This document shows, in pieces, positions 983 to 26,798 of a stretch of 64,000 nt of DNA. Every line of letters begins with the position of its first letter. Position 1 is the first letter of the stretch. Source of the DNA: Morchella semilibera (lineage: Eukaryota > Ascomycota > Pezizomycetes > Pezizales > Morchellaceae); NCBI GenBank assembly GCA_009192285.1, contig CM018603.1, positions 4,562,062 through 4,626,061 on the forward strand. The letters are read 5' to 3'. The notes under the pieces are model-generated. The model ran no database searches and had not been told where the DNA came from. It saw only the letters and a program-made list of their open reading frames with translations. The translations under genes were made by a program, and so were the position numbers.

Positions 983-1327
983 CTATGCCCCCGCTTCCGC
1001 CGCCTCCGCCGTCTCCATTACTCCTCCATTCACCTCCTCCTCCAGTATAACATCTTTGCGACACTGGTCATGCATCTCAGCATCGTTCAGCTTGATCTGC
1101 ATGTGCAACTTGAGAATAGCGATGTAATCCAGGATATGCTGCATCTCCACTGTGACGTTGTGGGGTGACATAGTGTTTGAGAATCCAGAACGCACGAGAT
1201 CTGCGCGGGCCAAGATGATGCGGCTCTCGAGGCGGTGGTAGACACGCATGCTGGAGCGGATCTGGTTATTACAGTTTTCGAGCCAGGTTGCGAGGTTGAA
1301 GCCGTTTACGAGTGGTTGGAGTGTCAT
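983..1327 (-). CDS. Small helical protein, array member 1
   Basis: A 114-residue protein is predicted if translation starts at the ATG at 1327. The frame stays open to 1567, but that extra N-terminus is Pro/Thr-rich and unlike the other members, and a splice-acceptor-like CCAG lies one base before this ATG, the layout seen in members 2 and 3. No convincing donor was found for this copy. The centre carries the pattern shared with members 2 and 5: a Tyr, then an Ile/Leu-rich helix ending Ala-Arg-x-Asp-Leu and an aromatic residue (here SGF). The C-terminus is Glu/Ala-rich and probably a helix or coiled coil. No signal peptide, membrane segment or known domain is visible. Function unknown; kinship to the other members is inferred by eye. 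Confidence 0.6.
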   Translation of the reverse strand: MTLQPLVNGFNLATWLENCNNQIRSSMRVYHRLESRIILARADLVRSGFSNTMSPHNVTVEMQHILDYIAILKLHMQIKLNDAEMHDQCRKDVILEEEVNGGVMETAEAAEAGA

Positions 1328-1990
1328 CCTGGCTCTGTCGGGGTTTTTGGGTTTTTGGGGAAGAGGTATGAGAAGGTGGGTGATAGTCAGTGGTGGGGTT
1401 GTGGTTGTGGTAGGATGGGGCTTTGGATGGGGCCACGTGACCCATGGGAGAGTATAGGTGGGGCTGGATGTAGGCATGACTAGGGGTGAGTGTGTCAGAG
1501 CTTTATAGCATCCGATCTTCCCCTGGGAAATAGAAAGAGAAATTGAGCATATACCCTTGGATAACACCAGAAAAGATCTCTTTCACAAGAAAGTAAAGCA
1601 CAAGCCAGACCTCCGATATCCAATGATGTCACCTACAGACGTTCACAAGACTTTTCACTTTAAGAACAAAAGCTAAGAGGTGAAAAAAGGGATTATGACT
1701 AGATTGTATTATAGAATTCCACCCCATGAACTCCTTTACTCGCGGGAAGAGTATCTTCCCACATTTGACCTTACATACCTGGGCTCTTTAACCCCACCAC
1801 CCCCCCCTCCCTGCCGCCGGCTCCAAGATTGACCGCACCCGCGCGAGATGGATTTGGGTGGGGGGGTGGGGTGGCGTATATGATAGGTGGTGAATGGAAG
1901 GTTTACTTGGGTGCCTAGAGTTTCAATTCCGTCCTAGTAGCACTACATGTAGTATCCCAACTTGCTATTTCCTCCCTATCCTCACGCAGC

Positions 1991-2332
1991 CTATGCTGTA
2001 GCTTCTACCCCCTTTCTCTCCGCTTTCTCTACCTCCTGCGCCTCCCATCCCTCTAGCTCCTGTAGCTTGAGATCCTTGAGTATTCTTACGCGCTCCATGG
2101 CCTCCCCATACTCCATCTCCAGCAGTTGCTTCATTATCATTATGTCATATTGTTGATCGAGGATATCGAGGCTCATGAATTCCGTGAAAGCTACATGGCT
2201 CAGGTCGATACGCGCCACGATTATGCGGCCTTGAATCGTGAGTATTTCGATGTATCTCATGTTCAGCTCCGCTTCCAGATCGGCGATCAAGGCGGTGTTG
2301 GATATGATGTTTGCGGGGTGGGATGTAGTCAT
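1991..2332 (-). CDS. Small helical protein, array member 2
   Basis: A 113-residue protein starting at the ATG at 2332. It is almost entirely predicted helix, with a core reading GRIIVARIDLSHVAF that aligns with SRIILARADLVRSGF of member 1 and CDLVIARVTLQESGY of member 5. The C-terminal third is charged (Lys/Glu) and ends in an Ala-containing tail. A candidate intron directly precedes the start: donor GTCAGT at 2405, branch-like GCTAACTAAC, acceptor CCAG at 2334, leaving one base before ATG. No known domain is recognised. An intracellular scaffold or coiled-coil role would fit the shape, but nothing in the sequence proves it. Confidence 0.65.
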   Translation of the reverse strand: MTTSHPANIISNTALIADLEAELNMRYIEILTIQGRIIVARIDLSHVAFTEFMSLDILDQQYDIMIMKQLLEMEYGEAMERVRILKDLKLQELEGWEAQEVEKAERKGVEATA

Positions 2333-2333
2333 G

Positions 2334-2405
2334 CTGGAACGTTGGGTTAGTTAGCTTGGTGGTGAGGGGATGTGGGATCAAGGAGAGGAGGTGGGGGCGA
2401 CTGAC
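2334..2405 (-). other. Candidate intron ending one base before ATG
   Basis: On the reverse strand GTCAGT opens and TTCCAG closes a 72-base stretch with a GCTAAC branch-like site. It would be a 5' UTR intron of the gene at 1991-2332. Predicted from splice motifs only. Confidence 0.5.
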
Positions 2406-3378
2406 ATTTCGGGAGGCTTTGTTGTAGAGTGGTGGGATGAGTTGTTTCGAGTAGGCTCCTGAGTTGATAGTGCTGGTGTTGTATAGTGGGGATGGTGGTG
2501 GCGGTGGTGGTAGTTGGGATTGGTAGCTAAGTAATTTCAGGGACGTTGGTTGATAGTGCACGGGAACCTCTACAGATGAAGTCGAAAACGCCGTTCAGTG
2601 GCACCACAAGCTCCAACCCCGCGCGATACCACTGACCGGTATTCCTTCTCCTATACAAATAAGGCCCCTTAGTTTATATCCGGATAAAAACCAAACGGCT
2701 TAAGAAAAACGATACGATCCAAAACATATCAATTTCAAATGACCATCAGTAACCAGCGCCCTAGCACAAGGGATGTGATTGACGGTATTTGGGATTAATG
2801 AATTACACATATATGGACGATAATTGATGCAACGGCTATCAATACTTCACATATAAGACCTACATACCTACTTATAGAATGGCAGGAAGCACACAGCCAA
2901 CTCCACTGTGCAGATTATTTCTCTGGAAATAATCTTTTTGCAGGTACATAACCAATAACCCGAGCTCCTATACCAAAGCATAAGGTCATATAAATAAACC
3001 CAGTGATCGAATACTGACTAAAAACATTTATTTTGACTACCTATACGGCGATCATTGAACTGAACCCCTCCTCATACCACCTCAAGAAGAGACCAAAATA
3101 TCACTATCAGTTCAAATGTAAATCTACATACGATCAGTATCTTGGATTGCGTAAACCAGGAGGATTTGTCTTCATATTATGAGCTAGGCCCAGTCATTCA
3201 ACGCCGGCGTACAGTAGTGGGGATTTGACAGTAGCTTGTTAGAAAATCAATCTTCTCCCCCACCTAGTGAATATCACTACCAGAAGCTCTTTCCCCTTTT
3301 CATCCTATGTTAAATTTTGTCTCAACAAAAATACACAGGTGATTACCATCTACCCCAGCTCCTACTATCGCCAGTACA
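2406..3378. other. Intergenic, AT-rich in part
   Basis: Nothing coding is supported. The stretch presumably holds the promoter of the 1991-2332 gene and the 3' region of the 3379-3930 gene. No clear repeats were noted. Confidence 0.5.
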
Positions 3379-3930
3379 TCACGCATCCTCCATCTCCCCT
3401 TCACACCACGCCACTTCCTCCTCCATAACCTCCACAACCTTCGCAATCGCCGCCAACTCCCCCGCCCTCGCAAAGGCGGCCTCCATCTCCTCCTCCACCA
3501 CATCGATGCGCATCAGCAGCGTATCCATCTCTGCCGTGAGGCCCTCGAAGCCGACGACGAGGTCGATCCCCGTTGCGTCTAACTCGTCGTATAGCGCTGT
3601 GAGCTCGCGCTGCTTTGCAGGGTGCTCCGCGAAGTCGGCGGTGATGGCCGAGAGCTTGCGGATCAGGTCTTCGGCTCTGTGCACGCGCGAGGTGGCGGCC
3701 CTGATGCTGCTGGTGAGGTGGGGGTCGAGCAGGTGTGGTGTGCTGCGGCTGCGGGCGGCGGAGAGATGGCGCTCTTGGTGGCGGCGGAAGGCATGGTAAA
3801 TGGTGAGGTGGCGGTGGAGGGTTGCGAGAAGCAGGGCGTGGAGGGTGGGGTCTTGACGGGAGTATTGCTGGCTGCGCTTGCTGGAGATAGTGGGTGCGGG
3901 AGCGGAGGGTGGGTAGGGTTGGTTGAGCAT
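3379..3930 (-). CDS. Small helical protein, array member 3 (183 residues)
   Basis: A 183-residue protein from the ATG at 3930, the longest of the set. After a Pro/Ser-rich N-terminus of about 30 residues it is predicted to be nearly all helix, with an IYHAFRRHQERHL...AAR stretch resembling the Tyr-plus-Arg core of the other members, then a Glu/Ala-rich C-terminal coiled coil. A 54-base intron is well supported just upstream: donor GTAGAG, branch GTCTAAC, acceptor CTCCAG, with one base left before the ATG. Codons are GC-rich. Membership of the array is weaker than for members 1, 2 and 5 because the sequence is more diverged. No catalytic or membrane motif is seen and function is unknown. Confidence 0.65.
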   Translation of the reverse strand: MLNQPYPPSAPAPTISSKRSQQYSRQDPTLHALLLATLHRHLTIYHAFRRHQERHLSAARSRSTPHLLDPHLTSSIRAATSRVHRAEDLIRKLSAITADFAEHPAKQRELTALYDELDATGIDLVVGFEGLTAEMDTLLMRIDVVEEEMEAAFARAGELAAIAKVVEVMEEEVAWCEGEMEDA

Positions 3931-3931
3931 A

Positions 3932-3985
3932 CTGGAGAGCGGGGATGTTAGACGGTGGGATAAGGTAGGAGGGGTGAAGCTCTAC
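3932..3985 (-). other. Candidate 5' UTR intron of array member 3
   Basis: The reverse strand reads GTAGAG, then GTCTAAC near the end, then CTCCAG: 54 bases, a typical fungal intron size. The start codon follows after a single T. Confidence 0.6.
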
Positions 3986-4351
3986 CTTGCGGGCCTAGAT
4001 GGGTGTTTTGGTAGTTGAAGGGTTATGTGCTTTGGAGAAGTGGTTTTGATGATGGGAAAGAGAGACTTTCAATTTCGAGTAGTGTGTAATCTTGAATGGA
4101 GTGGATCGCGCAAAGACAGTTGGATGGGAACTTGCACTCAAATGAGAGCTTCCTGACTAGCGGGCTGATGTAATTGTTCCGGGGGAGCTCTACCTCATAT
4201 CTTATGCTCTTGGGAGTCACAAAGACCACATCTTAGTTTTATTACTTTGAGATATTTTCAGTCAGCTGAAGGATATACTTAATCTTCTGATTAACGCGGG
4301 CGTTGAATAGCGTTTACATACAAAACTAACCGCCCCTTTCTATGTTGGCAT

Positions 4352-4356
4352 GATGT
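4352..4356. repeat. Target site duplication GATGT (left)
   Basis: The five bases GATGT abut the left LTR at 4357 and recur at 11834-11838 directly after the right LTR, as expected for integrase-mediated insertion. Confidence 0.9.
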
Positions 4357-4748
4357 TGTAAAGGGATATCTCAGAAGTCACTAAGATATGGCTAATGCTA
4401 AGCGATAGTTCTGTAGCTTTTAAACTTGTAATATTGTAGACCGGATTCCGTTCGCTTGAGAGGATGATGATTCCCCTAAGACGACGGGAATCCTACTAGC
4501 TATTTATACAGGAAGAACCCCCTTAAACCCGCTAATTCCTTCAATAGCAAATCTCCCGCAATGCCTCCGCTACTGCTCCGATTTCCTACGAGGTGGGGTA
4601 ACCAAGGGTCCACTCATAAGGTGTGGTAGTGGTTGCCGAGTTATAACCGAACCCCGCTTCTGGGCGTACGTCACTCTTCCATCGCGCCGTCATACCAGGA
4701 CAATACCATTGTACTACCAGTACCGCACTCTCCAGCAATCCTGTAACA
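4357..4748 (-). repeat. 3' LTR of the Ty3/gypsy element
   Basis: A 392-base direct repeat, TG...CA bounded and identical by eye to 11442-11833. Because the element lies on the reverse strand, this left copy is its 3' LTR. Confidence 0.93.
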
Positions 4749-4763
4749 CTACTCTCCCCTTCC
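4749..4763 (-). other. Polypurine tract
   Basis: On the reverse strand the bases just inside the 3' LTR read GGAAGGGGAGAGTAG, a purine run in the right place to prime plus-strand DNA synthesis in an LTR element. Confidence 0.75.
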
Positions 4764-4842
4764 AAGCCGTCGTCCTCGACCGTTAAACCCTTCCATGGAA
4801 AAAACCCTGTGGGAAAAGCCATGATGAGGGAAGGTATCGGGA

Positions 4843-6288
4843 TTAATGCTTCATCAACCGCCGCTGCCTCTTAGTCTGCCGTACTCCGGACTCCGGAGCT
4901 ACTGTCACTTGACTCCGAGTGCGGGGACGGTTGCTAATAACTGGTTTAGCGTTCTCGTCAGCCAGTGCCTCTTGGGGCTCTGGTGTGGCCAGCCGTTTGC
5001 GAGTGTTCTGCTTCCGATTTGGATCCGTATCTTCACGATAGGGTCGCAGGAGCATCTCGTGAAACACGTTATGAACCCTCCAGTCTGCTGGTAGGTCCAG
5101 TCGGTATGCTCGATTACCGACTTTGGCTAGTACTTCGAAGGGTCCGGTGAACTTATCTGACCACTTGTTATATCCTCCGAGGTTCCTTGTGTCTAGCAGG
5201 ACCTTCTGCCCTGGTTCGAACTGCTGTGCTGCGGGACCAGGTCGTGACGCCATTTTATCGTACGTCTGCTGCAAGGTCACTCGAGCCAGTTCATGGGCGG
5301 CGAGAATTTCGTCCAGGTGGTTGTTCCCTTCGGCGTCCAGCTGCGCAATCTCCACATCCGTAGGCCAGTCTGAGCGTGGGTGAAACCCATAATTGCAGTA
5401 GAATGGTGACTGCCCGGTAGAGGAGTGTTTGGCGTTGTTGTAGGCGTACTCGCAGATAGGAAGTAGGTCTCTCCACTTCTTACCTGTGCCGGCCGTAAAC
5501 GCTCGTAGGTAGGACTCCATATGCTGGTTGGTCCTTTCCGTCTGACCATCTGTCTGCGGATGGAACGAGGTCGAGAGTCTTCTACGAATCCCTAGTCGTT
5601 CTGTGATCGCGGTCCAGAAAGCTGACACGAATTGTGTTCCTCGGTCCGATACTATTGATCGCGGGAGTCCGTGAAAGCGCCAGATGTCTTTGACGAAGGC
5701 TTGTGCGGTTTGCTCCGCGTTGATTCCTGTCATTGGGATGAAGTGCGCCATTTTACTGAAGCGGTCCACTACAACCATGACGTTCCGGAAACTTGACCGC
5801 TCCTTGGGCATTTCTACTACAAAATCCATGGAGATGTCGCACCAAGGGGTCGTGGCTAACTCTAGGGGCTGTGGAAGAGACATATGTCGTCGTCGTTGTT
5901 TGGCTCTTTGGCATACATCGCACGTGCTGACATATTTGGCTACATCCGTGGTCATTCCTGGCCACCAGTAGTTCCTGTCAATCAATTCCAAGGTTTTATC
6001 TCTGCCTAGATGCCCTGCCGTGGGTCGGTCGTGATGGTCTTCTATGACCTGCTTGACTGCGTGCCCAGGCACTACCCAGCGTCCTTCATGAGTCGCTGTA
6101 TTCTGATCGGGATCCCACTCTGTTGCAGCCCCCCGCAAGATGGTCTGCCGGGTCCACAGGTCCTCAGGATCTTCGTTATCAGGGAGTTCATCCGGAACTA
6201 TCCTACGAGTCCATCGACCCTCTTCTTCATACCAGTTCTGCAGAGCCGCAGGCATTCCCACTCCTGGTATGTGTACCCACTGATCCAC
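4843..6288 (-). CDS. Retrotransposon pol block: integrase
   Basis: This block of the Ty3/gypsy element encodes integrase. It shows the HHCC zinc-binding module (His residues near 86-93, CDVC near 123-126), the catalytic core with DISMDF, VSDRGTQF and a following E in DGQTERTN, then a GPY/F-type C-terminal module (KFTGPFEVL). A basic tail follows. Treated as part of the mobile element, not a host gene. Confidence 0.9.
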   Translation of the reverse strand: MDQWVHIPGVGMPAALQNWYEEEGRWTRRIVPDELPDNEDPEDLWTRQTILRGAATEWDPDQNTATHEGRWVVPGHAVKQVIEDHHDRPTAGHLGRDKTLELIDRNYWWPGMTTDVAKYVSTCDVCQRAKQRRRHMSLPQPLELATTPWCDISMDFVVEMPKERSSFRNVMVVVDRFSKMAHFIPMTGINAEQTAQAFVKDIWRFHGLPRSIVSDRGTQFVSAFWTAITERLGIRRRLSTSFHPQTDGQTERTNQHMESYLRAFTAGTGKKWRDLLPICEYAYNNAKHSSTGQSPFYCNYGFHPRSDWPTDVEIAQLDAEGNNHLDEILAAHELARVTLQQTYDKMASRPGPAAQQFEPGQKVLLDTRNLGGYNKWSDKFTGPFEVLAKVGNRAYRLDLPADWRVHNVFHEMLLRPYREDTDPNRKQNTRKRLATPEPQEALADENAKPVISNRPRTRSQVTVAPESGVRQTKRQRRLMKH

Positions 6289-6433
6289 TGGACGTACTTC
6301 TGATGAGTGATTGCAGAGGATTTCTTCACGGGGTTCTATTCCCGCTTGTGTCTTCTTGCAAAATGTCCGGGGAGGAGGTTTCTTTCTGCAAAGTGTTCAG
6401 GTGAGAGGAGCATTTTTACTGGCTGCTCTCGAA

Positions 6434-8386
6434 CTACTCCCCTTCCATAGCGTACTCCGGGCGCCTGGTTAAAGCATCAGGTTTCCCGTTCTTGTCGCCT
6501 GGTCGAAAGTGGATCTTGAAGTGAAAAGGTGCTATCTTTTCAGCCCATCGGGCCTGTCTTCTTGACAGCTTCTTGGTTGTTGTGAAGTACTGAAGGTTTT
6601 GGTGATCAGAATAAATCTGGATAGGTATGTCCGTACCTTCCAGCCAATGTCTCCAAGTCAGGAGGGCGGAAACTATTGCGAGCATCTCTTTATCGTAGAT
6701 CTCATAGTTGACTTCGGCCTCGTTGAACTTGCGAGAGTGGTAAGCCACCGGATGTAACTTGCCATCTTCGAACACCTGTGACAAGACCGCAGCCTCTGCC
6801 CAGTCGCTGGCATCTGTTTCAAGGACAGCCATGCGATGTTCGTCGTAGTGTCGGAGGATAGGAGCGGTGGTAAATAGCTTCTTGAGCCCCTCAAAAGCAT
6901 CCTGCTGCTCCCGACCCCACTTCCATACAGCATTTTTCTTCAGGAGATCTGTCATGGGCTTGCATACCGCAGAATACCCGTAGATGAACCGCCTTAGAAA
7001 GTTGGCGAATCCCAGGAAGCATTGAAGTTCCTTCACCTTTGTGGGTATTAACCACTCAGTGATAGCCTTCACCTTCTCGGGTGAGACTTGGGTGCCGCTA
7101 CCTGATAGCTTGAATCCTAGGAATTCTATCTCCGTTTGGAACCAAGCAGTCTTTTTCAGGTTGCCGTACAGGTGGTGATGTCGTAGCCGCTCCAGCACCC
7201 TGCGCACAAGAGCTACATGCTCTTGTCTGGACTTGGAATATATCAGGATATCATCCAAGTAAACCACTAGACCCTGATCTAACAGGTCCTTGAATATGGT
7301 ATTAACCATTGCCTGGAACGTTGCCGGGGCATTGGTTAAGCCGAAGGGCATTACTCTATATTCGAAGTGGCCGTATTTGGTCCGGAAAGCTGTCTTCCAC
7401 TCTTCTCCTTCGGCGATCCTTACTAGGTTGTAACCGTTCTTGAGATCGATCTTGGTGAAGAAGAGAGCTCCTTTCGTTGAGTCTGCCAGCTCTGTCATGA
7501 GAGGCAGTGGGTACCGGTTCTTGACTGTGACGGAGTTTAAGCCGCGGTAGTCGACGCATAACCGTAGTGACCCATCTTGTTTAGGGACGAAGAGGATTGG
7601 TGCCGCTGCTGGGCTGGAAGATGGGGCAATTTTACCTGCCGCTAACATTTCGTCCAGGTATTCCCTCAACGCTTTTTGTTCCGGGGGTGACAATGCATAG
7701 ATAGGACCCCACGGAGGTTGGCTTCCGTCCAAGAGAGGAATCGTATGATCCCACTCACTATGTTCCGGCAGGCGTCCTGCTCCTTCAGGGGAGAACACAT
7801 CTGCGTAGTCTTGGAACTCTTCCGGGATAGCACTAGCGAGAGTCTCGCTTCCCGTGTTTCGTGCCCAGAAAGGGTGCGACTCGAGAGGCATGTCAGGTTC
7901 AGGCATGTGTCGTAGAAGTCTGACGACCCTTTCTTGCCAACCTTCTTCGTACATGTCTCCTTCTGTCATCATACATCCCTTGATCTGGCACTTGATACTA
8001 TTAAAGCTAGCCTTATTCTGGCCCCAATGTATCGTGGGTTGATGCTCTTCGAGCCATCGATGTGGTATGACGAGATCTTCTCCGGCAAAGGTACCTATTT
8101 CGCAGGTGACCAGCCTGTCGAGGTGGCTACCAATGCGGAGTGTGAGAGGTTGGGTAATGTGAGTACCGGAGTGAGGCATACGTGAGCCATCAGCTTGTTT
8201 GATGAGGAGGGTTGTGGTGCGAGTCTTAACTGGGATGTCGGCCTGCTTGACGCAGTTCCAGGACATAATCCATGTCTCGGTACCGCTATCTAGCAACGCT
8301 TGGACCGTATGTGTAAAGTGTTTGTTGGTTTTAGGGTTGAGCCATGAGATCTCTATCTCGAGGCGGGTCTCTTGGGTGGTAGTCAT
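6434..8386 (-). CDS. Retrotransposon pol block: protease, RT, RNase H
   Basis: A block of about 650 codons of the Ty3/gypsy element. Near the start is an aspartic protease motif (LLDSGTETW). A full reverse transcriptase follows (KIDLKNGYN, the MPFGLTNAPATF segment, YLDDILIYS near residue 375), then RNase H (ETDASDWA near residue 523; IYSDHQNL). The domain order assigns it to Ty3/gypsy. It ends before the integrase block on the same strand. Confidence 0.93.
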   Translation of the reverse strand: MTTTQETRLEIEISWLNPKTNKHFTHTVQALLDSGTETWIMSWNCVKQADIPVKTRTTTLLIKQADGSRMPHSGTHITQPLTLRIGSHLDRLVTCEIGTFAGEDLVIPHRWLEEHQPTIHWGQNKASFNSIKCQIKGCMMTEGDMYEEGWQERVVRLLRHMPEPDMPLESHPFWARNTGSETLASAIPEEFQDYADVFSPEGAGRLPEHSEWDHTIPLLDGSQPPWGPIYALSPPEQKALREYLDEMLAAGKIAPSSSPAAAPILFVPKQDGSLRLCVDYRGLNSVTVKNRYPLPLMTELADSTKGALFFTKIDLKNGYNLVRIAEGEEWKTAFRTKYGHFEYRVMPFGLTNAPATFQAMVNTIFKDLLDQGLVVYLDDILIYSKSRQEHVALVRRVLERLRHHHLYGNLKKTAWFQTEIEFLGFKLSGSGTQVSPEKVKAITEWLIPTKVKELQCFLGFANFLRRFIYGYSAVCKPMTDLLKKNAVWKWGREQQDAFEGLKKLFTTAPILRHYDEHRMAVLETDASDWAEAAVLSQVFEDGKLHPVAYHSRKFNEAEVNYEIYDKEMLAIVSALLTWRHWLEGTDIPIQIYSDHQNLQYFTTTKKLSRRQARWAEKIAPFHFKIHFRPGDKNGKPDALTRRPEYAMEGE

Positions 8387-8764
8387 CTTGGTATGGGTGT
8401 GTTGTAGTAGAGGAGGATAGTTTTTACTTCTCCTCGAGGCGGATGAGGTTCCTTATATAACCAAGTGCGGGGTAGCTTTGACACGTCATGCCCAAAGAAT
8501 ACCTTGCCCTAATCACGAGTTCCTACTTTGCATTGGCAGTCTCTCCACAGGGTTATGGCAAGTCAACAGTGCGCAGTGCGTCTACTGTCCGCTATCTGTG
8601 TGGCCCCTCTGATTTCTGAACTTCTAGATTCGAGTCTTGGTTTCTGGCATTGGCCATTGCTTCCTCGCAGTATGGTTTTTTATAAAGAGGTTTTTATTTC
8701 CGTGCCCTAACAACTTATTTATTCGTAACCCAAAGAAAAGAAAACACTAAGAAATATAACAATT

Positions 8765-10936
8765 TTAGTCCTCCCCAAGTGCCGTGATCCTAGCCCTAAA
8801 TGCCTCGCCTTGAGGTCCCAATTTCTGCCTTTTCTCACTCTCTCCTTCCGGTTCCTTCGTCCTCGAAGTCTTATTCTCCCTTTTCCTCTTTTTCCCACTA
8901 GATCGTTCCGTCCCACCTGTCATCCTGACCTTTGAGGTCGAGTAACATTCCTTCGTCCAATGGCCTTCCCTTCCGCACCGGAGGCATTTATTCTCCTTCG
9001 TCCATTGGTCTTTCTCTGCTTGGGTGGCTCCCAGGCTACCAGTAGCTGGTCGAGGTTTGTTTGGAGAGTCCTCTCGTTCCTTTCTACGGGGACGGGAGTC
9101 GTCGCGCTCCTTTCTACGGGGGCGGGGTCGCTGGCGTTTGGGCTCTTGGTGCTTAGGTTCTCGAGTTTCCTGGGGTCTTGCTGGTTCCCTTCCACGCAGA
9201 ATCTTCTGGCGGGCTCTGACTTCAGCATCTTTCCTTCCCACTCTTCGAACCCATGCTAACCAATCTGGGAACTCAGATGGTTCTTCAATCGCAGCGGATA
9301 GTCTCTGTTCCAGCGTGGAGTTTATTCCTGTTAGAATCATGGACTTCATGACGATTGGGCCGACTCGAGCGTCCCATTCGAGGTTCTGCATCTCATTGAT
9401 GTAATCGTCGATAGGACCAGTTTGACGGAGATTATCCATCTTCTGCTTGGCCTGTTCTTGACTGGTGCGGTTACCATACTGGATGCGAAGTTCCTGCTTA
9501 AAGCGTTCCCAAGTACCGAGCCTAGGATTTATACTAAGCCTTTCCTTAAAGTTGCGCCAGAAGCTTGCTGCACTCCCGGTGAATTCCAGGGATGCCCAAA
9601 GGATTCGAGTCTTATCATCCCATATGACTCGGGGTTGAAGGTCCATCAGGATCTCCATTCGATCGATCCAATGGCGGACGTCTTCGTCGGGTTTACCAGA
9701 GAAGGGGATCTTGGCCTGTTTAGGGGTTTCTCCCTTGCGATGGCTGCGGGGAACCGGTGACTGCGTTTCTGCTCGTCGGTGGTGCCTGTCCCGTCTTCTC
9801 TTTGGTTTCCTATCATCATCGGAGGAGCTGGATGAGTCCGATGAGCTTGGACTGTCATCCCTCCTGTGCCTTCTTCTTCCGCTTCCGCCACCATTTCCTC
9901 CACCATTTCCTACCACTCCCTTCTCCAGTACAGGCTCCTCCTCCCTCCTACGTTTACCGTGGGATCTTCTGGGGGGTGGAGACGGGGATTTACTCCTCCT
10001 CCTGTTGGCTGGGGGTGAGGGTGGCGGTGCCCTTCCTTCTCCTGGGGAATCATTCTCAGACTCAACCCGGGGTTGCTTCTCCTTAAATGCTTTTAGTGCT
10101 ACCTTCAGCATTTTCCCCAACTCTGGCTGGATGGTGTCGGCAATAGGGGTAGGCGCCTTCGGTGGTTGAGCTGTCTGGGCTGCGGTGATAGTTGCCGCTA
10201 ACCCTTCAGGAACGTCCAGGTTTTTCTCTGTTTGCTGAGCCTGTATGTAGGCTGCCAGCGCCTGGGTTTGTTGCCGTTGTTGCTCATTTTCAAGGGCCAT
10301 TTGCCTGAACCTTAGCTCAGTTGCTGCCTGTTGATTTTGCGCATAGGCTTGGAACTGGCTAGCCAAAGTACCTAGGGCGGTGGTCATCTGCCCTTGTTGC
10401 CCTTCTACCTCCCGGAACTTCCCTTGTAATTCTCCCACCAGTTGTTGTCCACCTTGGACTACCTGGTCGTGTTGATGCTCCCTTGCCCTGGCTTCTGCCT
10501 GAAGGGCCCAGTCCGTCTGAGCCGCGAGGCCTCTCATACCCTGGACGAGTACCTCGGTCCTGAGGGGTCGTGGGGTCTCCTGCTCGTAGAACTGTTCGTC
10601 GACGGAGGAGGTGCTCGCGTAGCTGACGTCGCTCATATCCCCATCCGAACCAGAGCGCCTCACTGTAATAGTGGCCTGCCTGGTTGGAGTCTCGAAGGGG
10701 TTGAGGTCCATGCTGGCAGAGCTGCGCGTAATCCTTTTCGGATCTCGCTTGCGGACCTTCTTCGGGGCTTTGGCTTTGAGGGGGGCAGGGTTCCATAGCT
10801 CTACGGCGGGGGTGTCCCTGGCTCTGCTCGCTATTGTGGGATGAGCCTGGGCCAGGGCGGTATCTTTGTCCCGGACCACGATGGCTTCCGCCATATCTTG
10901 GTCTTCCCGTGAGGTTAACGCTAGTGGGAGGGACAT
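8765..10936 (-). CDS. Retrotransposon gag
   Basis: Long gag-like frame; the first ATG is at 10936, giving about 723 residues. The N-terminal 400 residues are low-complexity and Gln/Ser/Arg-rich with probable coiled coil. A retrotransposon gag domain begins near residue 415 (WIDRMEILMDL, then a WERFKQELRIQYG stretch). A CCHC zinc knuckle (CLRCGREGHWTKEC) sits near residue 650, and the tail is basic. It is the first internal gene after the 5' LTR and a leader of about 500 bases. Long Ser/Arg-rich N-terminal extensions are common in fungal gag proteins. Confidence 0.9.
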   Translation of the reverse strand: MSLPLALTSREDQDMAEAIVVRDKDTALAQAHPTIASRARDTPAVELWNPAPLKAKAPKKVRKRDPKRITRSSASMDLNPFETPTRQATITVRRSGSDGDMSDVSYASTSSVDEQFYEQETPRPLRTEVLVQGMRGLAAQTDWALQAEARAREHQHDQVVQGGQQLVGELQGKFREVEGQQGQMTTALGTLASQFQAYAQNQQAATELRFRQMALENEQQRQQTQALAAYIQAQQTEKNLDVPEGLAATITAAQTAQPPKAPTPIADTIQPELGKMLKVALKAFKEKQPRVESENDSPGEGRAPPPSPPANRRRSKSPSPPPRRSHGKRRREEEPVLEKGVVGNGGGNGGGSGRRRHRRDDSPSSSDSSSSSDDDRKPKRRRDRHHRRAETQSPVPRSHRKGETPKQAKIPFSGKPDEDVRHWIDRMEILMDLQPRVIWDDKTRILWASLEFTGSAASFWRNFKERLSINPRLGTWERFKQELRIQYGNRTSQEQAKQKMDNLRQTGPIDDYINEMQNLEWDARVGPIVMKSMILTGINSTLEQRLSAAIEEPSEFPDWLAWVRRVGRKDAEVRARQKILRGREPARPQETREPKHQEPKRQRPRPRRKERDDSRPRRKEREDSPNKPRPATGSLGATQAEKDQWTKENKCLRCGREGHWTKECYSTSKVRMTGGTERSSGKKRKRENKTSRTKEPEGESEKRQKLGPQGEAFRARITALGED

Positions 10937-11441
10937 CTTTAAAGAATTCAATTGGGAGGTCGGGGGTGTTGATGCACCAAGGTAGAGGGGTAAACCAAGG
11001 TACCGATTGCGCTAAGCCGTGAGAGTTCTGGCGAAGCGTTATGAGGATGGAGGGGGTGTGGTTGGGTTCAAGGATATTTTCCTTGAAGGTGGCGATGGTG
11101 CGTGCTTCTGTGAAGAAGCCTTGGTGTTGGAGGTAGCCGCAGTAGAGATGTTCTGCGCTGCCTCGAGGGACGGAAAAGGAGGTTTCACAGGGGAAGCGAA
11201 GCATGTACTAATCCTCTTGATCACTACTCCTTATACCGAGTGCCCGTGTACTATCCGTACCTAGCAATCACACAAGGTAATCGAAGTGTTGTCTCGAGAA
11301 AGTAGTGGGCTCGCTTATAGTAGGAGCAGAGTTGGACAGAGAGTCCAAATGTTTTCTCTGATTGCGACGTGGAGGCGGAGGTACCAATAGATGGCTCTCT
11401 CCACAGTCATAGGGTATGCGACCGGATAAGGCACAATATAG

Positions 11442-11833
11442 TGTAAAGGGATATCTCAGAAGTCACTAAGATATGGCTAATGCTAAGCGATAGTTCTGTA
11501 GCTTTTAAACTTGTAATATTGTAGACCGGATTCCGTTCGCTTGAGAGGATGATGATTCCCCTAAGACGACGGGAATCCTACTAGCTATTTATACAGGAAG
11601 AACCCCCTTAAACCCGCTAATTCCTTCAATAGCAAATCTCCCGCAATGCCTCCGCTACTGCTCCGATTTCCTACGAGGTGGGGTAACCAAGGGTCCACTC
11701 ATAAGGTGTGGTAGTGGTTGCCGAGTTATAACCGAACCCCGCTTCTGGGCGTACGTCACTCTTCCATCGCGCCGTCATACCAGGACAATACCATTGTACT
11801 ACCAGTACCGCACTCTCCAGCAATCCTGTAACA
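11442..11833 (-). repeat. 5' LTR of the Ty3/gypsy element
   Basis: A 392-base copy matching 4357-4748. In element orientation it is the 5' LTR, followed by the leader and gag. No clear tRNA primer-binding match was identified next to it. Confidence 0.93.
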
Positions 11834-11838
11834 GATGT
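11834..11838. repeat. Target site duplication GATGT (right)
   Basis: Matches 4352-4356 and marks the outer boundary of the insertion. Confidence 0.9.
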
Positions 11839-12417
11839 AGTCCTTTTGTGACAAACAGCTTGCAGTGCACAAAGTTTCGCACGTGGGTGAGTCATGGGGT
11901 ATCACTCGGTCAAAGTAGCGCACGCCACAAACCAGCCCGCAACACACCACCATCTAAATATCCCCAATACACTCGACGACCATATGCACAGTGAGATACA
12001 CTCTGAGTAGTTAACGCGGGCCGACGAAATACCTCTATTTTCCTAAAAGTTGCTGATATATTAATAAGACATAGGTGGTCAATAGGCATTTTTTCAATTA
12101 ATGATATAAACAAAAAAAAAAAAATCGGAATTTTTTGTCCTGGGCCAGGCTGCGGCTGGGGAGGTGCCTTATACACTTGTAACCGCTTAAGGCTTTACGG
12201 GACTCATTGGACATATGCCATGGGCAGGTCTTGGGCCTGTGGTGAGGCGCTGATAATCGTGCAGTCCAGTATGGGAAAGAGTATCACACCCGGACGACAT
12301 CAGCAACTAGGAAAAACGACCAAGACAACAACCACCATTAAAAGCACGGCACGCAAGAAGCACAACAAACTATCCATAACCCCAGATATTTATTCCTATC
12401 GCTATCCCCATAAACCA
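11839..12417. other. Intergenic with a possible A-tailed insert
   Basis: No gene is supported. At about 12095-12124 an AATTAATGATATAAAC sequence runs into a long A tract. This resembles the 3' ends of the short retroposon inserts described elsewhere in the window, but no clean target duplication was found. Confidence 0.4.
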
Positions 12418-12684
12418 TCACGCCTCACTCTCGCGCCTCTCCAGCTCCGCAAGCAACACGTCCTTCATTGCTCTATCCGCATCCCTGGCCTCCGCCAGTG
12501 CAGCCTCCATCATGCGCTCAATCTCCTCGATCTCGAGCAGGTACCGGCGCGGGCTGAGGGAGCGCTCGAGCTGCGAGTGCATGTGTGCGTGGTGGGACCG
12601 CAGCTCGTTGTACACGCCCATGGTGAGGCGGATGTAGTCGAGGTGGTGGGAGACAAGCTCGTCGGCCGTGGCGGGTGTGGACAT
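12418..12684 (-). CDS. Small helical protein, array member 4 (88 residues)
   Basis: An 88-residue protein from the ATG at 12684 (MSTPATADEL). It is predicted to be all helix after the first ten residues. A TMGVYNELRSHHAHMHSQLER stretch aligns loosely with IYHAFRRHQERHL of member 3, and the C-terminus is a Glu/Ala-rich coiled-coil segment ending ERRESEA. This is the shortest member, and no intron with good splice sites is visible at its start, unlike its neighbours. It lies just beyond the retrotransposon, so the insertion separates members 3 and 4. No known domain is recognised. Confidence 0.6.
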   Translation of the reverse strand: MSTPATADELVSHHLDYIRLTMGVYNELRSHHAHMHSQLERSLSPRRYLLEIEEIERMMEAALAEARDADRAMKDVLLAELERRESEA

Positions 12685-14534
12685 TATTCGTGCTAGGTTT
12701 TGGGTAGGTGGTAGATCTAAGGGAGGATTGGCGGTGGGTGATTGTTTGTATGTGAGCTGTTGGAAAGCGTGGAGGAGAGAAAAGGGTCTGGTGAAGTGGG
12801 GGTATCGGTATTGAGAGGCTTTAAGTGCGAGTTGAGGTGGTGTGTAGTGCTGTTTGGTTTTCGGAAACGGGGTCTTGAAATGTGTGGGTAGACATTTTTC
12901 CTGGCTACCATGTGATATATTTTGCTCGCCGTGTGGTTCGCCTTTGTGTTGGCTGTAGACCTCCGAGACGTAGGAAGGTCATGAGAATACCGATCTCGTT
13001 TGGCAGATCTTTATAGTTCCCAGGCCTAGAGCCATTGTGCTAGTTTATGGTATATAGGTACCTGTTGTACATAAATCAATTAGATCTATGAAGTCTTGTA
13101 CTGTCTACCTTTTTCGCCCAAGGATTAAGTCGCGGAGCTTGGAGCCTTGGAACATCGGTATTCTCAGGCAATGCGGTCAATAGCCAATTAACCCGATCAA
13201 ACAGACCCACCCTACCCCCCACCCGACGAGTATAAAGTTTCCCAAATTGAGAGAGAAAGTGTGATCTCGCCCCCCGGAAACAGTTGGTGTGTGCATGGTG
13301 CCGCTCACACAATAGACGCCCATGGCTCAGGTAACATCTGATCTAAACATTAGCCAGAGGAAGGGGGAAGATTTCTGTGTGGCTAATCTCAGGGAACATA
13401 TCATCGGGCTTAACTAACCACCAGTACCCAGGTGAACAAGGTTAGGTAAGTGTTTGAGCCGCACCACAGAAATTCTCCCAAAACAGAACCTACCAGTACC
13501 CATCCAACCACACCCCACCAATACCGTCATAGCCATCATCACCACCACCACGACGGCCATACTTTCCAACTCCCCAACGCTCAAACCCATCCCTTTCTCT
13601 TCGTCCAGTATCTTACAACATTTCACCAATAACAGGGCAGCATACAGCCGTAATAGCACTGGCTTGAGGGCCTACTCGCTTCTGGACTTGTACGTATCAC
13701 CCACGCGTTATTTTCTCAATCCATATTGTTCTTTCCATCTCTAATATAGTCTAGAACCCTACCTATCGGAAACGGGAGATAGGAAAGACTTCGAATCAAA
13801 CCAGTATCCTGCATCAGGATTTTTATCCCCCACAGAGCAAGCAGTGCTGAGGCCCGTAGACCCGTAGGGCCGCAGTCACAACCAAATCCAAATATGAATC
13901 CTGTTGGTAAATCATGTGGGCTGGACCTCGCTCGAGGTTGGCTTCGGTCCCTACTATCAACTGGGGATATGATAATTTCCGCCATGCCCAGGCGTCTGGG
14001 GTTGGTTGATGCGGAATGATATCTTCGGCTTGCTCGGGAGGCCCAGCACGGGCGGGTGCTGGGCGCACTGGTGGTTTTTTTTTTCATCCTGGTTCAGGCA
14101 ATATACGGCTCTATCGTCTCCTGGTTGGTCATTGAGTCTATCATGAGGCAAGCCCTATGACGTTACCAGTAGAGGTTTCATGATTATCGATATCGATAGT
14201 GGCAACTCTACGGCGACCTACCAAAGTGGGCTCGTTTTGTACTTTCCGATAGTCGTAGGACTGACTACAAGAGAAGGAGACCATTGACTTTAAGGGAAGA
14301 GGATATTTTTATATGAAACGCCGCTACCTTAGTCCTTTCAGATCTCGAACGTTGGCGGGCATTATGATGGGCGAATCAACACATGCATGGCAGATGAACG
14401 ACGGGAGACCGTACAGTGAACACTAATCAAGTGTATCATTTTAATTCGTCATCTAATGTCCCGGAAACAAAGTTCATCATCTCTCACTGGATTACATGAT
14501 TTGAAATTCACCTTTTAATTCCTCCTCTCACCAC
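12685..14534. other. Intergenic
   Basis: No gene is supported over about 1.85 kb. Several frames of 60-120 codons overlap on both strands between 13.4 and 14.15 kb without motifs. A run of CA/AC-rich short repeats lies near 13500-13560. Confidence 0.45.
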
Positions 14535-14996
14535 CTACTGCCCAGCACCCCCAGCCGCCTTCGCCTTCGCCTCCTCCGCCTTCGCCTCCTCCCCCTTCGT
14601 CTTCGCCTCCTTCTCCTTCGCCCTCTTCTCCTCCACTTCTTCAGCTACCAAGTGGTCGAACATCAAATCCTTCATGTGCATGTTGAGCTGCTCTGCAAAG
14701 CGGGTCTCGAGACGCATTTGTTCCTCAAGGCCTTTAACTCTTTCAAAGAGTGACTCCTGGTGGTCGGTCAACTCCTGTCCAGCGACGTAGCCGCTTTCCT
14801 GGAGGGTGACACGGGCAATAACGAGATCGCACTGGAGTTGGTAGATGTTTTTGGTAAGATCACGAACACCTTGCTGATGCCAATAGATTTGGATAAGACG
14901 GGCGAAGGATGCCCTGGCGGCGGGGCTCAAAGTGCTGCTCCTATTGCTGGTGTTAGTGTGGTAATTGGAGTGGTTAGAGAGGGTTGTGATTTACAT
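14535..14996 (-). CDS. Small helical protein, array member 5, start codon split by intron
   Basis: The gene has two exons, 14995-14996 and 14535-14940. The open frame has no ATG upstream of its helical domain; removing a 54-base intron joins A-T from exon 1 to G of exon 2 and gives a protein starting MSSTLSPAARASFARL, about 134 residues. The core NIYQLQCDLVIARVTLQESGY matches members 1 and 2 best. The C-terminal third is a Lys/Glu/Ala repeat, almost certainly a long single helix or coiled coil, encoded by GGCGGAGG-like codon repeats. No known domain, signal peptide or membrane segment is present. The gene model depends on the predicted intron; the frame itself is well supported by similarity to its neighbours. 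Confidence 0.65.
14941..14994 (-). other. Candidate intron inside the start codon
   Basis: Reverse-strand donor GTAAAT, branch-like CACTAAC, acceptor CAATAG: 54 bases. Splicing creates the ATG from AT plus G. A nearer CCAG lies too close to the branch A to be the likely acceptor. Confidence 0.55.
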
Positions 14997-22319: not shown

Positions 22320-24539
22320 TTATAGATGCGGCCAGAAGTCTTCCCAAGGAACTGTCTTGAATGATCCCTCCGGTAATTTCCTTATAATAAGAAAACATTC
22401 TATGATTATATATGCCCGTGATGCGATATATAGGGTAAATACCAGGTATGATGAACCGTCCACCAGAATCTCTTTGACTTTACTTAGTAACCTACTTATG
22501 TGGGTTCTGGCCCAGAAAAAGTAGGTAACTCTTGTCCTGAAGAGTTTATAAGTTCTTCTTATGCCAAAGAATTCTCTGCCCTCCAATGCCTCGCTCCTTG
22601 TTGTAAATGGCTTGAATAGTGTTTCTCCGATCCTCCTTGCGTAGTCTGACCCAAAGAGCCCTCGTATGTGAAAAAGCCATACAAATAGCAGTCCACCGGC
22701 AAGAAACCCGCATGATATTTTCCAGAGTAATTCTTCGGCCAGCGAGGGAAAGGTCATATTCCATGCGCTGGTGTGGATGGCAAAGTAGATTGCATAGCAT
22801 ACGGTAAAGGAAAATATGAACCGATTCAATTGCTGGGCCAGATGGAATGCAGAATAGTGGATACTTTCCCGAGGGGCAAAGCCATAAGACTTTGAACTAG
22901 AATCTTTGAGAGAGCGATACCTTGGGTCCCGTTGTTCCGCGACTGCAAGCGTAGCTGTTCGTAGATCTCTTTTTGTGAGGTAAAAGTGGTTATAGGACAT
23001 AGAGATATACTGGTCAAAAGCCGTTAACCTATACCCATTCGTAGTATCATAAACATAGATGTTTCTGCATTCACGTCCGAACTCACGCAGCTGATCCTGG
23101 ACCAATTCTGGTACTATAGGTATGTCCTCATCAATACCGGCATTCCCCGTCTGTCCTTGGTCGCTAAGGGGCAAGCTATACGGAGCAGCCCGCTCGAATA
23201 TCTGGAGGCTATAGCGTGTTTCTTGTCCGCCAGTGAGTAAAGTAAAATTGTGGATCGCGAACCCTGCCTGGATGCTCGGTGTACCTTCCTCCGTCCCCAT
23301 GTGGTAACTTCTCGTGAACAGGTATGCGCGTAAACATTCGTCCAGAAGCGCGAGTGACAGTGATATGGGCTGGCGGACGTTGTGCGGCTTTTGCCACCAG
23401 AAGCCATACATAACGACAGCAAACACGACATGTGCAAGAACGTTTAACTCGAGCAGTGTGACCGGTAGACTACTAGCCGCCCGACAGATACAATTGATCA
23501 ACATCCACCCGGCCTGTAGACAGACGACAAGCTTAGCTATAGCATCTGATTTTGATCTATCAGAAATATCACCCCTGAGAGAAGATAGCTTGAATGCGCT
23601 CAACACGCCTGCTCTAAGGAGATCAATTAACAGCTCTTTGTTGATAACACATGTCCTATCCTGCTCGCGAGGATATCCCGCCAGAGAAAACGTATAGCCG
23701 CCCATTTGGACAAAGAAAGCGTCCTCCATGGTAAATTCTATCCCCACCAAGACTGGACACTCCCCACATACCGTTTCGATCCAGGACTGAAATCTGACAA
23801 GAATTGTCATTAAAGAAGCCAAGAACTCGCTCCCGCAGCACGGGGGAGATTTTCCAATCCTGCCAGAACGATGAAGGATCTCAGAGAGGTGTTGGTGGGC
23901 CTTTTTAATGTCCCTTATAGAGTCCAGCGCCCCCCTCGCGAGTTTGGGGTCGACACCATCGAGAGGCGGGGCCCGGGTGGTAGCGGTGTCCTCAGGGCCT
24001 GTGGTGTTGTTGGATTTCAAGTCTTCCAAAGCTTTCTGTCCCTTCTCAATATGACTCTTCAAATCGTGTAAGCCCTTGAGCTCACTAGCCTTCTTTAGGG
24101 CGCTCCCCTCCGCTCTCGCTAGCAGTAAGCCCCCCTCTCTAATAACAGATTCCAGTATCTCTCCACCTGTTACAAGCAGTACATCGCGCAAAAGTCTTTT
24201 TGCCTCCCACCAATCGCGATATGCTTGAGCCATGATTAACTCTGGGGCAATTAGTGCCGTTAGCACTGAAAGCCCTTTATTCCTCAGAGATCGTAAGACG
24301 GTCGGATTTTTGATGATATTGGGATGGATAACGGTCCAGACCGCTAGCATCAATGTGATAGTTGAATTCATCAGAAGATCCATTGTGCCTCGACCTGTTG
24401 GGTTCGACTTAAAGGGGGGCTCAAATCGTTGTTCGGCTGCCGCGTTCGGTAATGGAGATGCAGCAACGGGGCCTGGGACGACCAGCGCGGTGATCCCATA
24501 GATAATGAGAGTGAACATTGACAGAAAGAGCACTGCCAT
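22320..24539 (-). CDS. Fungal multi-pass integral membrane protein
   Basis: About 739 residues from the first in-frame ATG at 24539; the frame continues a few codons upstream to a region with splice-like sequence, so an upstream exon is possible. It begins with a hydrophobic segment like a signal anchor, and further membrane spans follow near residues 60-80, 340-390 and in the last third. It has the look of a large fungal membrane-protein family: a pair of spans leading to FWWQKPHNV, and a C-terminal stretch with TSAWNMTFPSLAEELLWKIS before another span. A charged, probably helical region (residues about 140-230) may face the cytosol. No enzymatic motif is recognised. The next gene on the same strand is a lipase. 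Confidence 0.8.
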   Translation of the reverse strand: MAVLFLSMFTLIIYGITALVVPGPVAASPLPNAAAEQRFEPPFKSNPTGRGTMDLLMNSTITLMLAVWTVIHPNIIKNPTVLRSLRNKGLSVLTALIAPELIMAQAYRDWWEAKRLLRDVLLVTGGEILESVIREGGLLLARAEGSALKKASELKGLHDLKSHIEKGQKALEDLKSNNTTGPEDTATTRAPPLDGVDPKLARGALDSIRDIKKAHQHLSEILHRSGRIGKSPPCCGSEFLASLMTILVRFQSWIETVCGECPVLVGIEFTMEDAFFVQMGGYTFSLAGYPREQDRTCVINKELLIDLLRAGVLSAFKLSSLRGDISDRSKSDAIAKLVVCLQAGWMLINCICRAASSLPVTLLELNVLAHVVFAVVMYGFWWQKPHNVRQPISLSLALLDECLRAYLFTRSYHMGTEEGTPSIQAGFAIHNFTLLTGGQETRYSLQIFERAAPYSLPLSDQGQTGNAGIDEDIPIVPELVQDQLREFGRECRNIYVYDTTNGYRLTAFDQYISMSYNHFYLTKRDLRTATLAVAEQRDPRYRSLKDSSSKSYGFAPRESIHYSAFHLAQQLNRFIFSFTVCYAIYFAIHTSAWNMTFPSLAEELLWKISCGFLAGGLLFVWLFHIRGLFGSDYARRIGETLFKPFTTRSEALEGREFFGIRRTYKLFRTRVTYFFWARTHISRLLSKVKEILVDGSSYLVFTLYIASRAYIIIECFLIIRKLPEGSFKTVPWEDFWPHL

Positions 24540-26798
24540 TATAATCAGCACCTCAGGCACCCATTCCTTAGTATGCTATACTCACCAGGCCTGCTATACC
24601 AAACACAGTAGTCTGAGATCGATAGTAGATGGAAAATTTCTATAATTTAGGAACTTGATATTAGATTACCTTCCATATATTGCATATATTGGGATATGTA
24701 ACGTACATTAGACTGACAAGAAATTATTGTTGGTTATGCGTGCGGTTAAGTTGCCAGACCACTATACCAAAGTTGCTCCCTCTCGCCGGCTCGCCCCCAC
24801 AGGTTTTATATCAAGCTCGCAGTGTGGCAGCCCTTAGCCTTCCCGTGAATAGGTTCGGCAGCAAAGCCACCCCTACCCGGCACACCTGCCAACAATCACT
24901 GCAAAAACGGAAGGGCCGGACCCGAATACTCTACTCTCACTGGTCAAGGTCATGGAAACTTAACCTCAGTGGTCACGATTGAGGCTTAGCACCCACCCGC
25001 CACATCAGAAACTAAAAAGCGCCCCTCCGGTCTCAGGCCAGCCCGTTCAGAATTTTCGGACTTTTGCGACATGTGAATCGCTGTCGTGGGCCACTACAAA
25101 TCTTTCTAGTGCTGGGTGGACGGTTTCATTTTAGTCAAGGAAGGCGGAGTGGGTTATGGCCTTGATTTACCTGTTGAGCCCTCCGCTGTCCCATAGCCCC
25201 CCTCTGAGTTTTTCGTGTTTCAGTAGGCGTTCGGGGCCAATCGCAAACTACCAGCCGCAAGAACAAAGCTAGAGCAGTATCCCCAGCTGATACCGCAGAA
25301 CCTCAGGAGTAACGGATTTTCTCAAGGCAACCAAAACTTCCGCTTTGGCGCTGTCGGTTTGGGGCTGAACAGGCATTTGACCAGTCCGAAGCCCAATATT
25401 CCAGTCCCAGCCGCTCTTCCTGGCATTTTGTGATAAAATGTTAGCGCATGCATATATCCTACGTACTGATAATTCAGCTATACAGCACGGGGTCGGGAAC
25501 TGATGTTGACATCACGGGGAAATACCCCGCGCCACTATCCTCACGCCGAGCTGCCACGCCGAGCTGAACGTGCACGTAACCTGAAGTGTAGAGCCATATC
25601 AGTGACAACTCTTGATACGATTATGCTCTGATTCTCTAGGAAACGCCGCTTTACCTGGCATTTGCGATGATTGCATGTATGTATATGAAGAGATGGGTCC
25701 CTGGAATTGGATTTATAGCCGTTATAACGAAGCTGTAGTAGTATTGCTAGTTTGCAAAATTAACCGGACACCGCGTTGCATATGGGAAAGCAACTTCAAC
25801 ATCGACTACACCACAACCAAAACAGATAAATGTATGAGATTTCATCTTTGGTGTTCTCTATACTCATATTATCATATATTCCAATGTGGACTCAATTGAA
25901 GCAATTTGAACATTTGGTTATTGTAGCCCATTTGCATGGTCGCAACGTGAGCGTCCGGTCAATTTTGCAAACCCACTATACATAGCCACAGTGATGCTTA
26001 TACCAAAGTATACTTACCAGCCAGGTACAAACAAGAACGACAGAAGATGAATCGATTACTCCCAAAAGGAAGCAACCGACATAGAGTACGATAAGTATAT
26101 AATGGGGTATATATATATATATATTGTATATCAGATACATGAGCAGACACTTAATAAGGCCATCACCAGGCCGGCCTGTCCCCCTGGAACCGTAATTAAA
26201 CTCTACTGTACGTTTACCCCATTCATTTCGCATATCACCCCCGCCTACTGCTGCTGCAACCACAACCACTGTCTACAGGACTTACCCTAGCAACTAAACG
26301 CTTATCAATGTAGTACATGTAGCTGCACGAAAGCCGGCGCCAAGACACCGGCGGCTGGGCCTGAGGCACGACATTTGTGCGTAAACACCTTCAAGTTTCT
26401 AATCCCAATTTCTTTAGGATATAATTTTACTTCATACTATAAACCAGAGAGAAGATATAGTCTTGAACCAGATCGATGTTGGGTTCTGGGTAAACGCATT
26501 CAACCTCATTGCCCTGCATAGATACATGTATTTATCAGAACGCCAAGCCGGGGGTCTCACCCAATTCAATAAGAGCATTTCTGGTCTGGATGTTCCCTGA
26601 ATGCTAGGCCTTACACGTATATGTATGAAAGTCTATGCACTGGTAATAACCCCAATAATTTACTAATATTATGGTATATGTAGATGTGCTCAATGGATAT
26701 ACATAAATATGCTATGCTACGGGGGCTTGAGAAAGCATAAAAAGAACGACCTCGAAAGCACAGAGCTGAACACCACCACATATACCAAAACGTTACTA
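24540..26798. other. Intergenic
   Basis: No gene is supported across 2.2 kb. Holds a direct repeat of CACGCCGAGCTG near 25540-25570, an AT dinucleotide run near 26107-26123, and TACATGTA octamers at 26314 and 26523. Confidence 0.45.

What the first reader, a model, noticed from the sequence alone, without database searches (positions are those of the whole stretch)
983..14996. Array of five small helical-protein genes of unknown family
Five reverse-strand genes of 88-183 residues within 14 kb share a layout: short N-terminus, an [IV]Y...xAR core, then a Glu/Ala-rich coiled coil. Members 1, 2 and 5 align directly (SRIILARADLVRSGF / GRIIVARIDLSHVAF / CDLVIARVTLQESGY). Seen in sequence; common ancestry is inference and members 3 and 4 are weaker. 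I know no named family for it. Local duplication followed by fast divergence could mark a lineage-specific system.
Basis: partly seen in the sequence, partly recalled or inferred. Interest (0 to 1): 0.7.

Follow-up and report, generated by a model that had tools for sequence, protein, structure and literature searches.

The report
Fast-evolving array of helical hairpin genes
The five small genes are one end of a larger, inward-facing array of more than twenty fast-diverging relatives in what looks like a fungal chromosome; they seem to code for small two-helix hairpin proteins that match no named family we searched, and their job is unknown.

Summary
The finding is real and larger than reported. 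A profile started from members 1, 2, 4 and 5 and iterated over 264 kb of the same chromosome, plus 21 kb further along, finds 26 related frames at E<0.005 and no decoy. Of these, 23 lie in C1:4,483,085-4,577,051: 10 on + to the left, then 13 on - to the right, all pointing inward. In leave-one-out tests 21 of 21 frames tried (of the 26) score E<=0.016 and none of 5,023 decoys does as well. Members 3 and 4 belong, member 3 only through 67 residues. Mean identity is 19%. AlphaFold gives confident two-helix hairpins for members 1 and 5. Pfam, NCBIfam, PHROGs and PDB give no convincing match. Nine single-member genome searches gave 23 non-self matches, 22 of them in C1:4.49-4.99 Mb. The pattern fits tandem birth-and-death duplication with the fold kept while other residues change freely. 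Function is inference: protein-binding modules under recognition or conflict pressure is my first choice (about 0.35); neutral turnover and nuclear adaptors stay open. Expression and presence in other species could not be tested.

The parts
983..1327 (-). member 1, 114 aa, hairpin-family gene
   Evidence: leave-one-out E 2.4e-21; predicted helices 12-46 and 60-113, pLDDT 86.5
1991..2332 (-). member 2, 113 aa, hairpin-family gene
   Evidence: leave-one-out E 0.0038 (0.057 with all five window rows removed); score 61 with member 1 against a shuffle maximum of 53
3379..3930 (-). member 3, 183 aa; family match only in residues 107-173
   Evidence: leave-one-out E 1.6e-5; first 100 residues alone E 54, residues 90-183 alone E 1.8e-6
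4357..11833 (-). Ty3-type LTR retrotransposon inserted between members 3 and 4; not part of the family
   Evidence: gag, RT-RNase H and integrase frames; two 392-nt LTRs with 0 mismatches and ACATC on both sides
12418..12684 (-). member 4, 88 aa, hairpin-family gene
   Evidence: leave-one-out E 7.4e-8; score 63 with member 1 against a shuffle maximum of 47
14535..14939 (-). member 5, second exon, hairpin-family gene
   Evidence: leave-one-out E 2.5e-16; predicted helices 6-48 and 59-131, pLDDT 88.6
14941..14994 (-). predicted 54-nt intron that splits the start codon of member 5 (AT at 14996-14995)
   Evidence: GTAAAT, CTAAC, ATAG signals; no in-frame Met before the domain otherwise; not confirmed by transcripts

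Best explanation
What it is (shown): two tandem arrays of one unnamed protein family, pointing at each other, on contig 1 of a genome that looks fungal, with more divergent relatives 60-410 kb further along. How it arose (well supported): repeated local duplication with loss and decay, the two-helix hairpin being kept while most other residues and both tails change. How it works (inferred): each gene makes a small protein, with no signal peptide or membrane stretch seen, that folds into an antiparallel helical hairpin and binds a partner through it. The variety of copies is most likely kept up because the partner also changes, as in recognition of non-self or an arms race with selfish or foreign elements. 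I put about 0.93 on family, array and hairpin, and about 0.35 on the recognition or conflict role; the confidence below is for the whole statement, role included.
For: 26 frames at E<0.005, 0 decoys under 0.005; leave-one-out 21 of 21 tried at E<=0.016, 0 of 5,023 decoys as good. 10 + then 13 - frames; same-strand pairs more alike, p 0.0002; tree label changes 3 against 8.0 shuffled. Two members modelled as the same hairpin. Constraint on the protein: in the older pair 4551760/4554718 aa identity is 0.372 against 0.177 expected under neutral change; in the young pair 4980352/4981991 replacements are conservative in kind (BLOSUM 2.87 against 2.39, 2.2% of simulations as high) and 94% of neutral copies would hold a stop. 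GC3 exceeds GC2 in 21 of 21 properly cut rows. Fast change: replacements in the young pair are as frequent as under neutral change (0.537 against 0.525). No membrane-like or signal-like stretch in the 16 of 20 rows printed.
Against: No expression data, no other strain or species. The young pair shows no excess of third-position differences (21, 29, 23 at positions 1, 2, 3), dN 0.30 against dS 0.36, and its amino-acid identity is no higher in frame (0.537) than in the two other frames (0.574, 0.574), which also fits relaxed constraint. Heptad period of mean hydropathy is not significant. Four of ten pairs in the finding are not significant alone. Within each half of the array similarity does not fall significantly with distance (p 0.23, 0.17). 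Sixteen of 20 inner tree branches are open. Several copies look broken. Nothing ties any copy to recognition or conflict.
Confidence: 0.35

Rival explanations
1. Neutral turnover: in a repeat-rich stretch tandem duplicates are born and decay, kept open for a while, with no shared role beyond weak constraint on folding.
For: dN 0.30 and dS 0.36 in the young pair and no third-position excess; replacement number equal to neutral; pieces parted by an in-frame stop (4498463/4498700) and partial copies (4540398, 4548911, 4558883); three Ty3-type copies among the genes.
Against: The older pair keeps far more of its protein than neutral change would (0.372 against 0.177), and 94-98% of neutral copies of the young pair would hold a stop; a shared profile survives at 19% mean identity.
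Confidence: 0.27
2. Nuclear adaptors or regulators: the hairpins pair with each other or with chromatin or transcription proteins, and copies differ in the stage or target they serve.
For: NLS-like basic stretches in 5 of 6 second-cluster frames; ING and NuA4 hairpin chains among the structural matches.
Confidence: 0.2
3. Proteins that act outside the cell on another organism, a helical counterpart of fast-diverging effector families.
For: Fast divergence with a kept fold, as described for MAX effectors (PMC4624222, abstract and section list seen).
Against: No signal-like N-terminus in the 16 of 20 rows printed (some rows are trimmed).
Confidence: 0.06
4. No common ancestry: Glu/Ala-rich helical frames that look alike by composition.
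For: Mean identity 0.188; 4 of 10 pairs not significant.
Against: 0 of 5,023 composition-keeping decoys reach any of the 21 members tried; C1:4,577,052-4,726,000, real DNA beside the array, gives 1 frame at E<0.005 against 23 in the array.
Confidence: 0.02

Closest known systems
wtf and Spok killer gene families of fungi (PMC12693581, passages seen)
   Same: Fast-changing fungal families with copy-number differences, expansion and broken copies
   Different: No test of killing here; Spok proteins are described there with a coiled-coil plus a resistance domain with a catalytic core, which these 90-180 residue proteins have no room for; wtf proteins cross membranes (recalled) and these show no membrane stretch
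MAX effectors (PMC4624222, abstract and section list seen)
   Same: Small fungal proteins with kept fold and almost no shared sequence
   Different: MAX effectors are secreted beta-sandwiches; these are all-helical and show no signal-like N-terminus
Antiparallel hairpin proteins such as prefoldin beta, ESCRT-III core and ING dimerisation domains
   Same: Two-helix hairpin of about 100 residues
HeLo-type helical domains of fungal regulated cell death (PMC12881547, passages seen)
   Same: Small helical domains in fast-changing fungal genes
   Different: HeLo is a four-helix bundle in that paper's terms; these are two-helix hairpins, and no HET or HeLo family matched in Pfam

Membership tests
Tandem birth-and-death gene array (general kind) | Related genes side by side | tested here: met
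   23 frames in 94 kb, one frame in the next 149 kb
Tandem birth-and-death gene array (general kind) | Neighbours share orientation and are more alike than distant copies | tested here: met
   strand-sorted, p 0.0002; Mantel r -0.230, p 0.0004 over the array, but not significant within either half
Tandem birth-and-death gene array (general kind) | Broken copies among open ones | tested here: met
   in-frame stop between 4498463 and 4498700; partial 4540398, 4548911, 4558883; an unseen intron is not excluded
Any Pfam family | Match over the curated cut-off | tested here: not met
   five window members and 20 family rows: single-member matches only, best E 0.017
Prefoldin, ESCRT-III or ING hairpins | Structural match clearly above unrelated hairpins | tested here: inconclusive
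Fungal killer genes (wtf, Spok) | Membrane-spanning protein (wtf) | tested here: not met
   highest 19-residue mean hydropathy 1.30 in 16 of 20 rows printed
Fungal killer genes (wtf, Spok) | Kills spores that do not inherit it | not testable with these tools
   needs crosses
MAX effectors | Secreted beta-sandwich | tested here: not met
   all-helical models; no signal-like N-terminus in rows printed
Lineage-specific gene family | Absent from related fungi | not testable with these tools
   no other fungal genome held; one member each found no relative in prokaryote genomes or viral contigs

The most novel reading that the evidence does not exclude
Half a megabase or more of one fungal chromosome works as a recognition locus: a large set of hairpin proteins diversifies next to a set of RING-finger proteins, the hairpins acting as variable receptors or adaptors for the RING ubiquitin ligases, a split counterpart of animal TRIM proteins (RING plus coiled coil; recalled).
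Probability: 0.07. Interest if true: 0.88.

Novelty: new variant of a known kind. Interest (0 to 1): 0.55.

Why it matters
Unnamed fungal genes are usually met one at a time. Here more than twenty relatives lie in a row, so fold, birth, decay and rate of change can be compared within one genome. If copies vary between strains, the locus would be a natural candidate for a new recognition or conflict system, testable by removing the array and by crossing strains.

Tried and rejected
Chance resemblance: rejected by decoys. Origin from the neighbouring Ty3 element: its gag, RT and integrase frames were in the searched set and are not among the profile hits at E<=10. Link to the MAT1-1 mating-type gene: PF04769 gives one match under its cut-off, on C22; other mating-type genes were not sought. 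A second hairpin in the first half of m3: not supported (E 54). Shared promoter word: CAAACAA in 8 of 21 upstream stretches (corrected p 0.004), but the commonest 7-letter word in 30 random sets of 21 background stretches reached 7, so this is weak. Heptad period: not significant. Spliced starts: 8 of 31 family frames against 39 of 408 control frames, and 4 of the 6 frames with no Met before the domain; suggestive only. PDB and viral fold searches: no match at E<=0.001. PADLOC was not searched. Papers: seven searches, whose lists were capped at 10-15 rows, showed no title or abstract start describing such an array; the library holds open-licence papers only. Passages were seen in PMC12693581, PMC12881547 and PMC13208314, abstract and section list of PMC4624222; nothing else was read. 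Mean codon-position GC is not used, because two of its 23 rows were cut wrongly. The organism was not identified; that it is a filamentous ascomycete is a guess from introns and retrotransposons.
Full report
Setting. The window is C1:4,562,062-4,626,061 of a 56.8-Mb genome in 23 contigs. Ty3-type retrotransposons and predicted introns with GT..CTAAC..AG signals suggest a filamentous fungus; the species was not identified. C1 coordinates are window coordinates plus 4,562,061.

Observation. The five frames exist as described. Members 1, 2 and 5 share the 'AR' core; member 4 aligns best with member 1 (score 63 against a shuffle maximum of 47) although it lacks that motif; member 3 is weak in pairwise tests. 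Member 3 matches over residues 107-173 only; its first hundred residues do not match.

Extent. I read C1:4,462,001-4,726,000 (and the window), 18 kb in two pieces of C1:4,954,001-4,986,000 and a 3-kb locus at 4,971,271. Iterated search of 2,642 frames gives 26 at E<0.005 and no decoy under 0.005. Ten are on +: 4483085, 4486082, 4489045, 4492061, 4493502, 4495649, 4498463, 4499584, 4512576, 4514074. Thirteen are on -: 4540398, 4547072, 4548911, 4551760, 4553600, 4554718, 4558883, 4561139, then members 1 (4563047), 2 (4564055), 3 (4565443), 4 (4574482) and 5 (4576599). The others are 4638432 (+), 4980352 and 4981991 (both -). E-values after iteration are inflated because members help to shape the profile; the cleaner figures are the leave-one-out ones, done for 21 of the 26 (not for 4498463, 4499584, 4638432, 4980352, 4981991): E 2.4e-21 to 0.016, no decoy of 5,023 as good. 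Four more frames of the second cluster (4955892, 4957816, 4971130, 4984741) score only 0.018-0.045 but are matched by cluster members in single-protein searches, two of these four matches being weak (4984984 E 0.47, 4957849 E 6.5e-4, 4971271 E 3.0e-5; 4955892 was the query). C1:4,577,052-4,726,000 serves as a control in the same chromosome: one frame at E<0.005.

Genome-wide. Nine natural members were used one at a time (in one search with its predicted spliced start). They gave 23 non-self matches at E<=10, several places more than once; 22 lie in C1:4.49-4.99 Mb and one weak match (E 0.48) on C5.

Layout and history. All ten + frames lie left of all thirteen - frames, so both halves point inward. 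Three of the 26 rows (4498463, 4558883, 4638432) were dropped for coverage, leaving 21 array rows and 2 second-cluster rows. In the 21, same-strand pairs are more alike than opposite-strand pairs (difference 0.184, p 0.0002) and similarity falls with distance (r -0.230, p 0.0004), but not significantly inside either half (p 0.23 and 0.17). On the tree the right-hand label needs 3 changes against 8.0 in shuffles (0 of 500 as low) and the left-hand label 4 against 7.4 (3 of 500); one left-hand clade is not rejected (p 0.556); 16 of 20 inner branches are open and end branches are very long. The simplest account is two tandem arrays set against each other, each grown locally. The Ty3-type element between members 3 and 4 has two 392-nt LTRs without a mismatch and ACATC on both sides, so this gap is young. 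Decay is visible: 4498463 and 4498700 are two family pieces in one frame parted by a stop, and 4540398, 4548911 and 4558883 match only part of the profile; unseen introns are not excluded.

Proteins. Two window members, modelled from four- and five-row alignments, give the same shape: member 5, helices 6-48 and 59-131, pLDDT 88.6; member 1, helices 12-46 and 60-113, pLDDT 86.5. Well-kept columns include I1, I8, Y15, L29, I/L54, M61, A68, K76 and D77; the first are seven or fourteen apart, but a shuffle test of mean hydropathy was not significant in either helix (77.7% and 20.9% of shuffles as good). No signal-like or membrane-like stretch was seen in the 16 of 20 rows printed, some of them trimmed. 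Tails differ: net acidic in 16 of 24 array rows; an NLS-like basic stretch in 5 of 6 second-cluster rows and 2 of 24 array rows.

Selection. In the young pair 4980352/4981991 the core has aa identity 0.537 against 0.525 expected under neutral change, but replacements are conservative in kind (2.2% of simulations as high for the core, 0.25% for the whole coding part), and 94% (core) to 98% (whole) of neutral copies would hold a stop. In the older pair 4551760/4554718 identity is 0.372 against 0.177 (0 of 2,000 as high). Against constraint in the young pair: dN 0.30 and dS 0.36 (NG86; YN00 gave no value), no third-position excess (21, 29, 23), and identity in the two other frames is no lower (0.574 each). 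Together this fits proteins whose fold is guarded while other residues are free, or pushed, to change; it does not tell free from pushed.

Surroundings. The region holds a second local family, RING fingers: eight frames from 4,624,380 to 4,696,229, the first in the window at 62,319-62,765. Of three tested, two pass a Pfam RING cut-off; the one in the window matches RING models below their cut-offs. A genome search with one RING frame gives 16 matches, the query included: 12 on C1 (nine at 4.62-4.73 Mb, one at 5.18 Mb, two at 3.55 Mb) and four on other contigs. A third set of frames, about 220 residues and without Pfam match in the two tested, also lies here (4466310 with 4712591 E 1.4e-5, 4467534 with 4712591 E 0.027), though the genome search with 4712591 found 4466310 only at E 0.36. 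So the hairpin array is part of a stretch rich in diverging local families.

Verdict. The family, the array and the hairpin are well supported. The role is inference. I favour variable protein-binding modules under recognition or conflict pressure at about 0.35, over neutral turnover at 0.27 and nuclear adaptors at 0.2. Nothing here shows expression.

Noticed in passing
window 62319-62765 (-) and C1:4,629,082-4,696,229: Second local family: eight diverging RING-finger frames; a genome search with one gives 12 of 16 matches on C1.
   Followed up: partly
C1:4466310, 4467534, 4712591: Third set of frames of about 220 residues, weakly related to each other; no Pfam match in the two tested.
   Followed up: partly
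window 4357-11833 (-): Ty3-type retrotransposon with two identical 392-nt LTRs and a 5-base target duplication; two more near copies lie in the array at C1:4504735-4510831 and 4529364-4535714.
   Followed up: partly
C1:4541926-4546125 (+): A 1,400-residue open frame that looks like a copia-type polyprotein by eye; not tested against Pfam.
   Followed up: no
window 22326-24575 (-): 750-residue frame that looks membrane-bound, no Pfam match at E<=0.1.
   Followed up: no
window 26805-28337 (-): Class 3 lipase (Lipase_3, E 4.5e-18).
   Followed up: no
window 37792-38454 (-): Weak Myb/SANT-like match below the cut-off (E 0.028).
   Followed up: no
window 58793-61105 (-): Frame with C2H2 zinc fingers (E 6.9e-11).
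   Followed up: no
window 42501-42582 (+): The only tRNA gene found in the window, tRNA-Asp (gtc).
   Followed up: no
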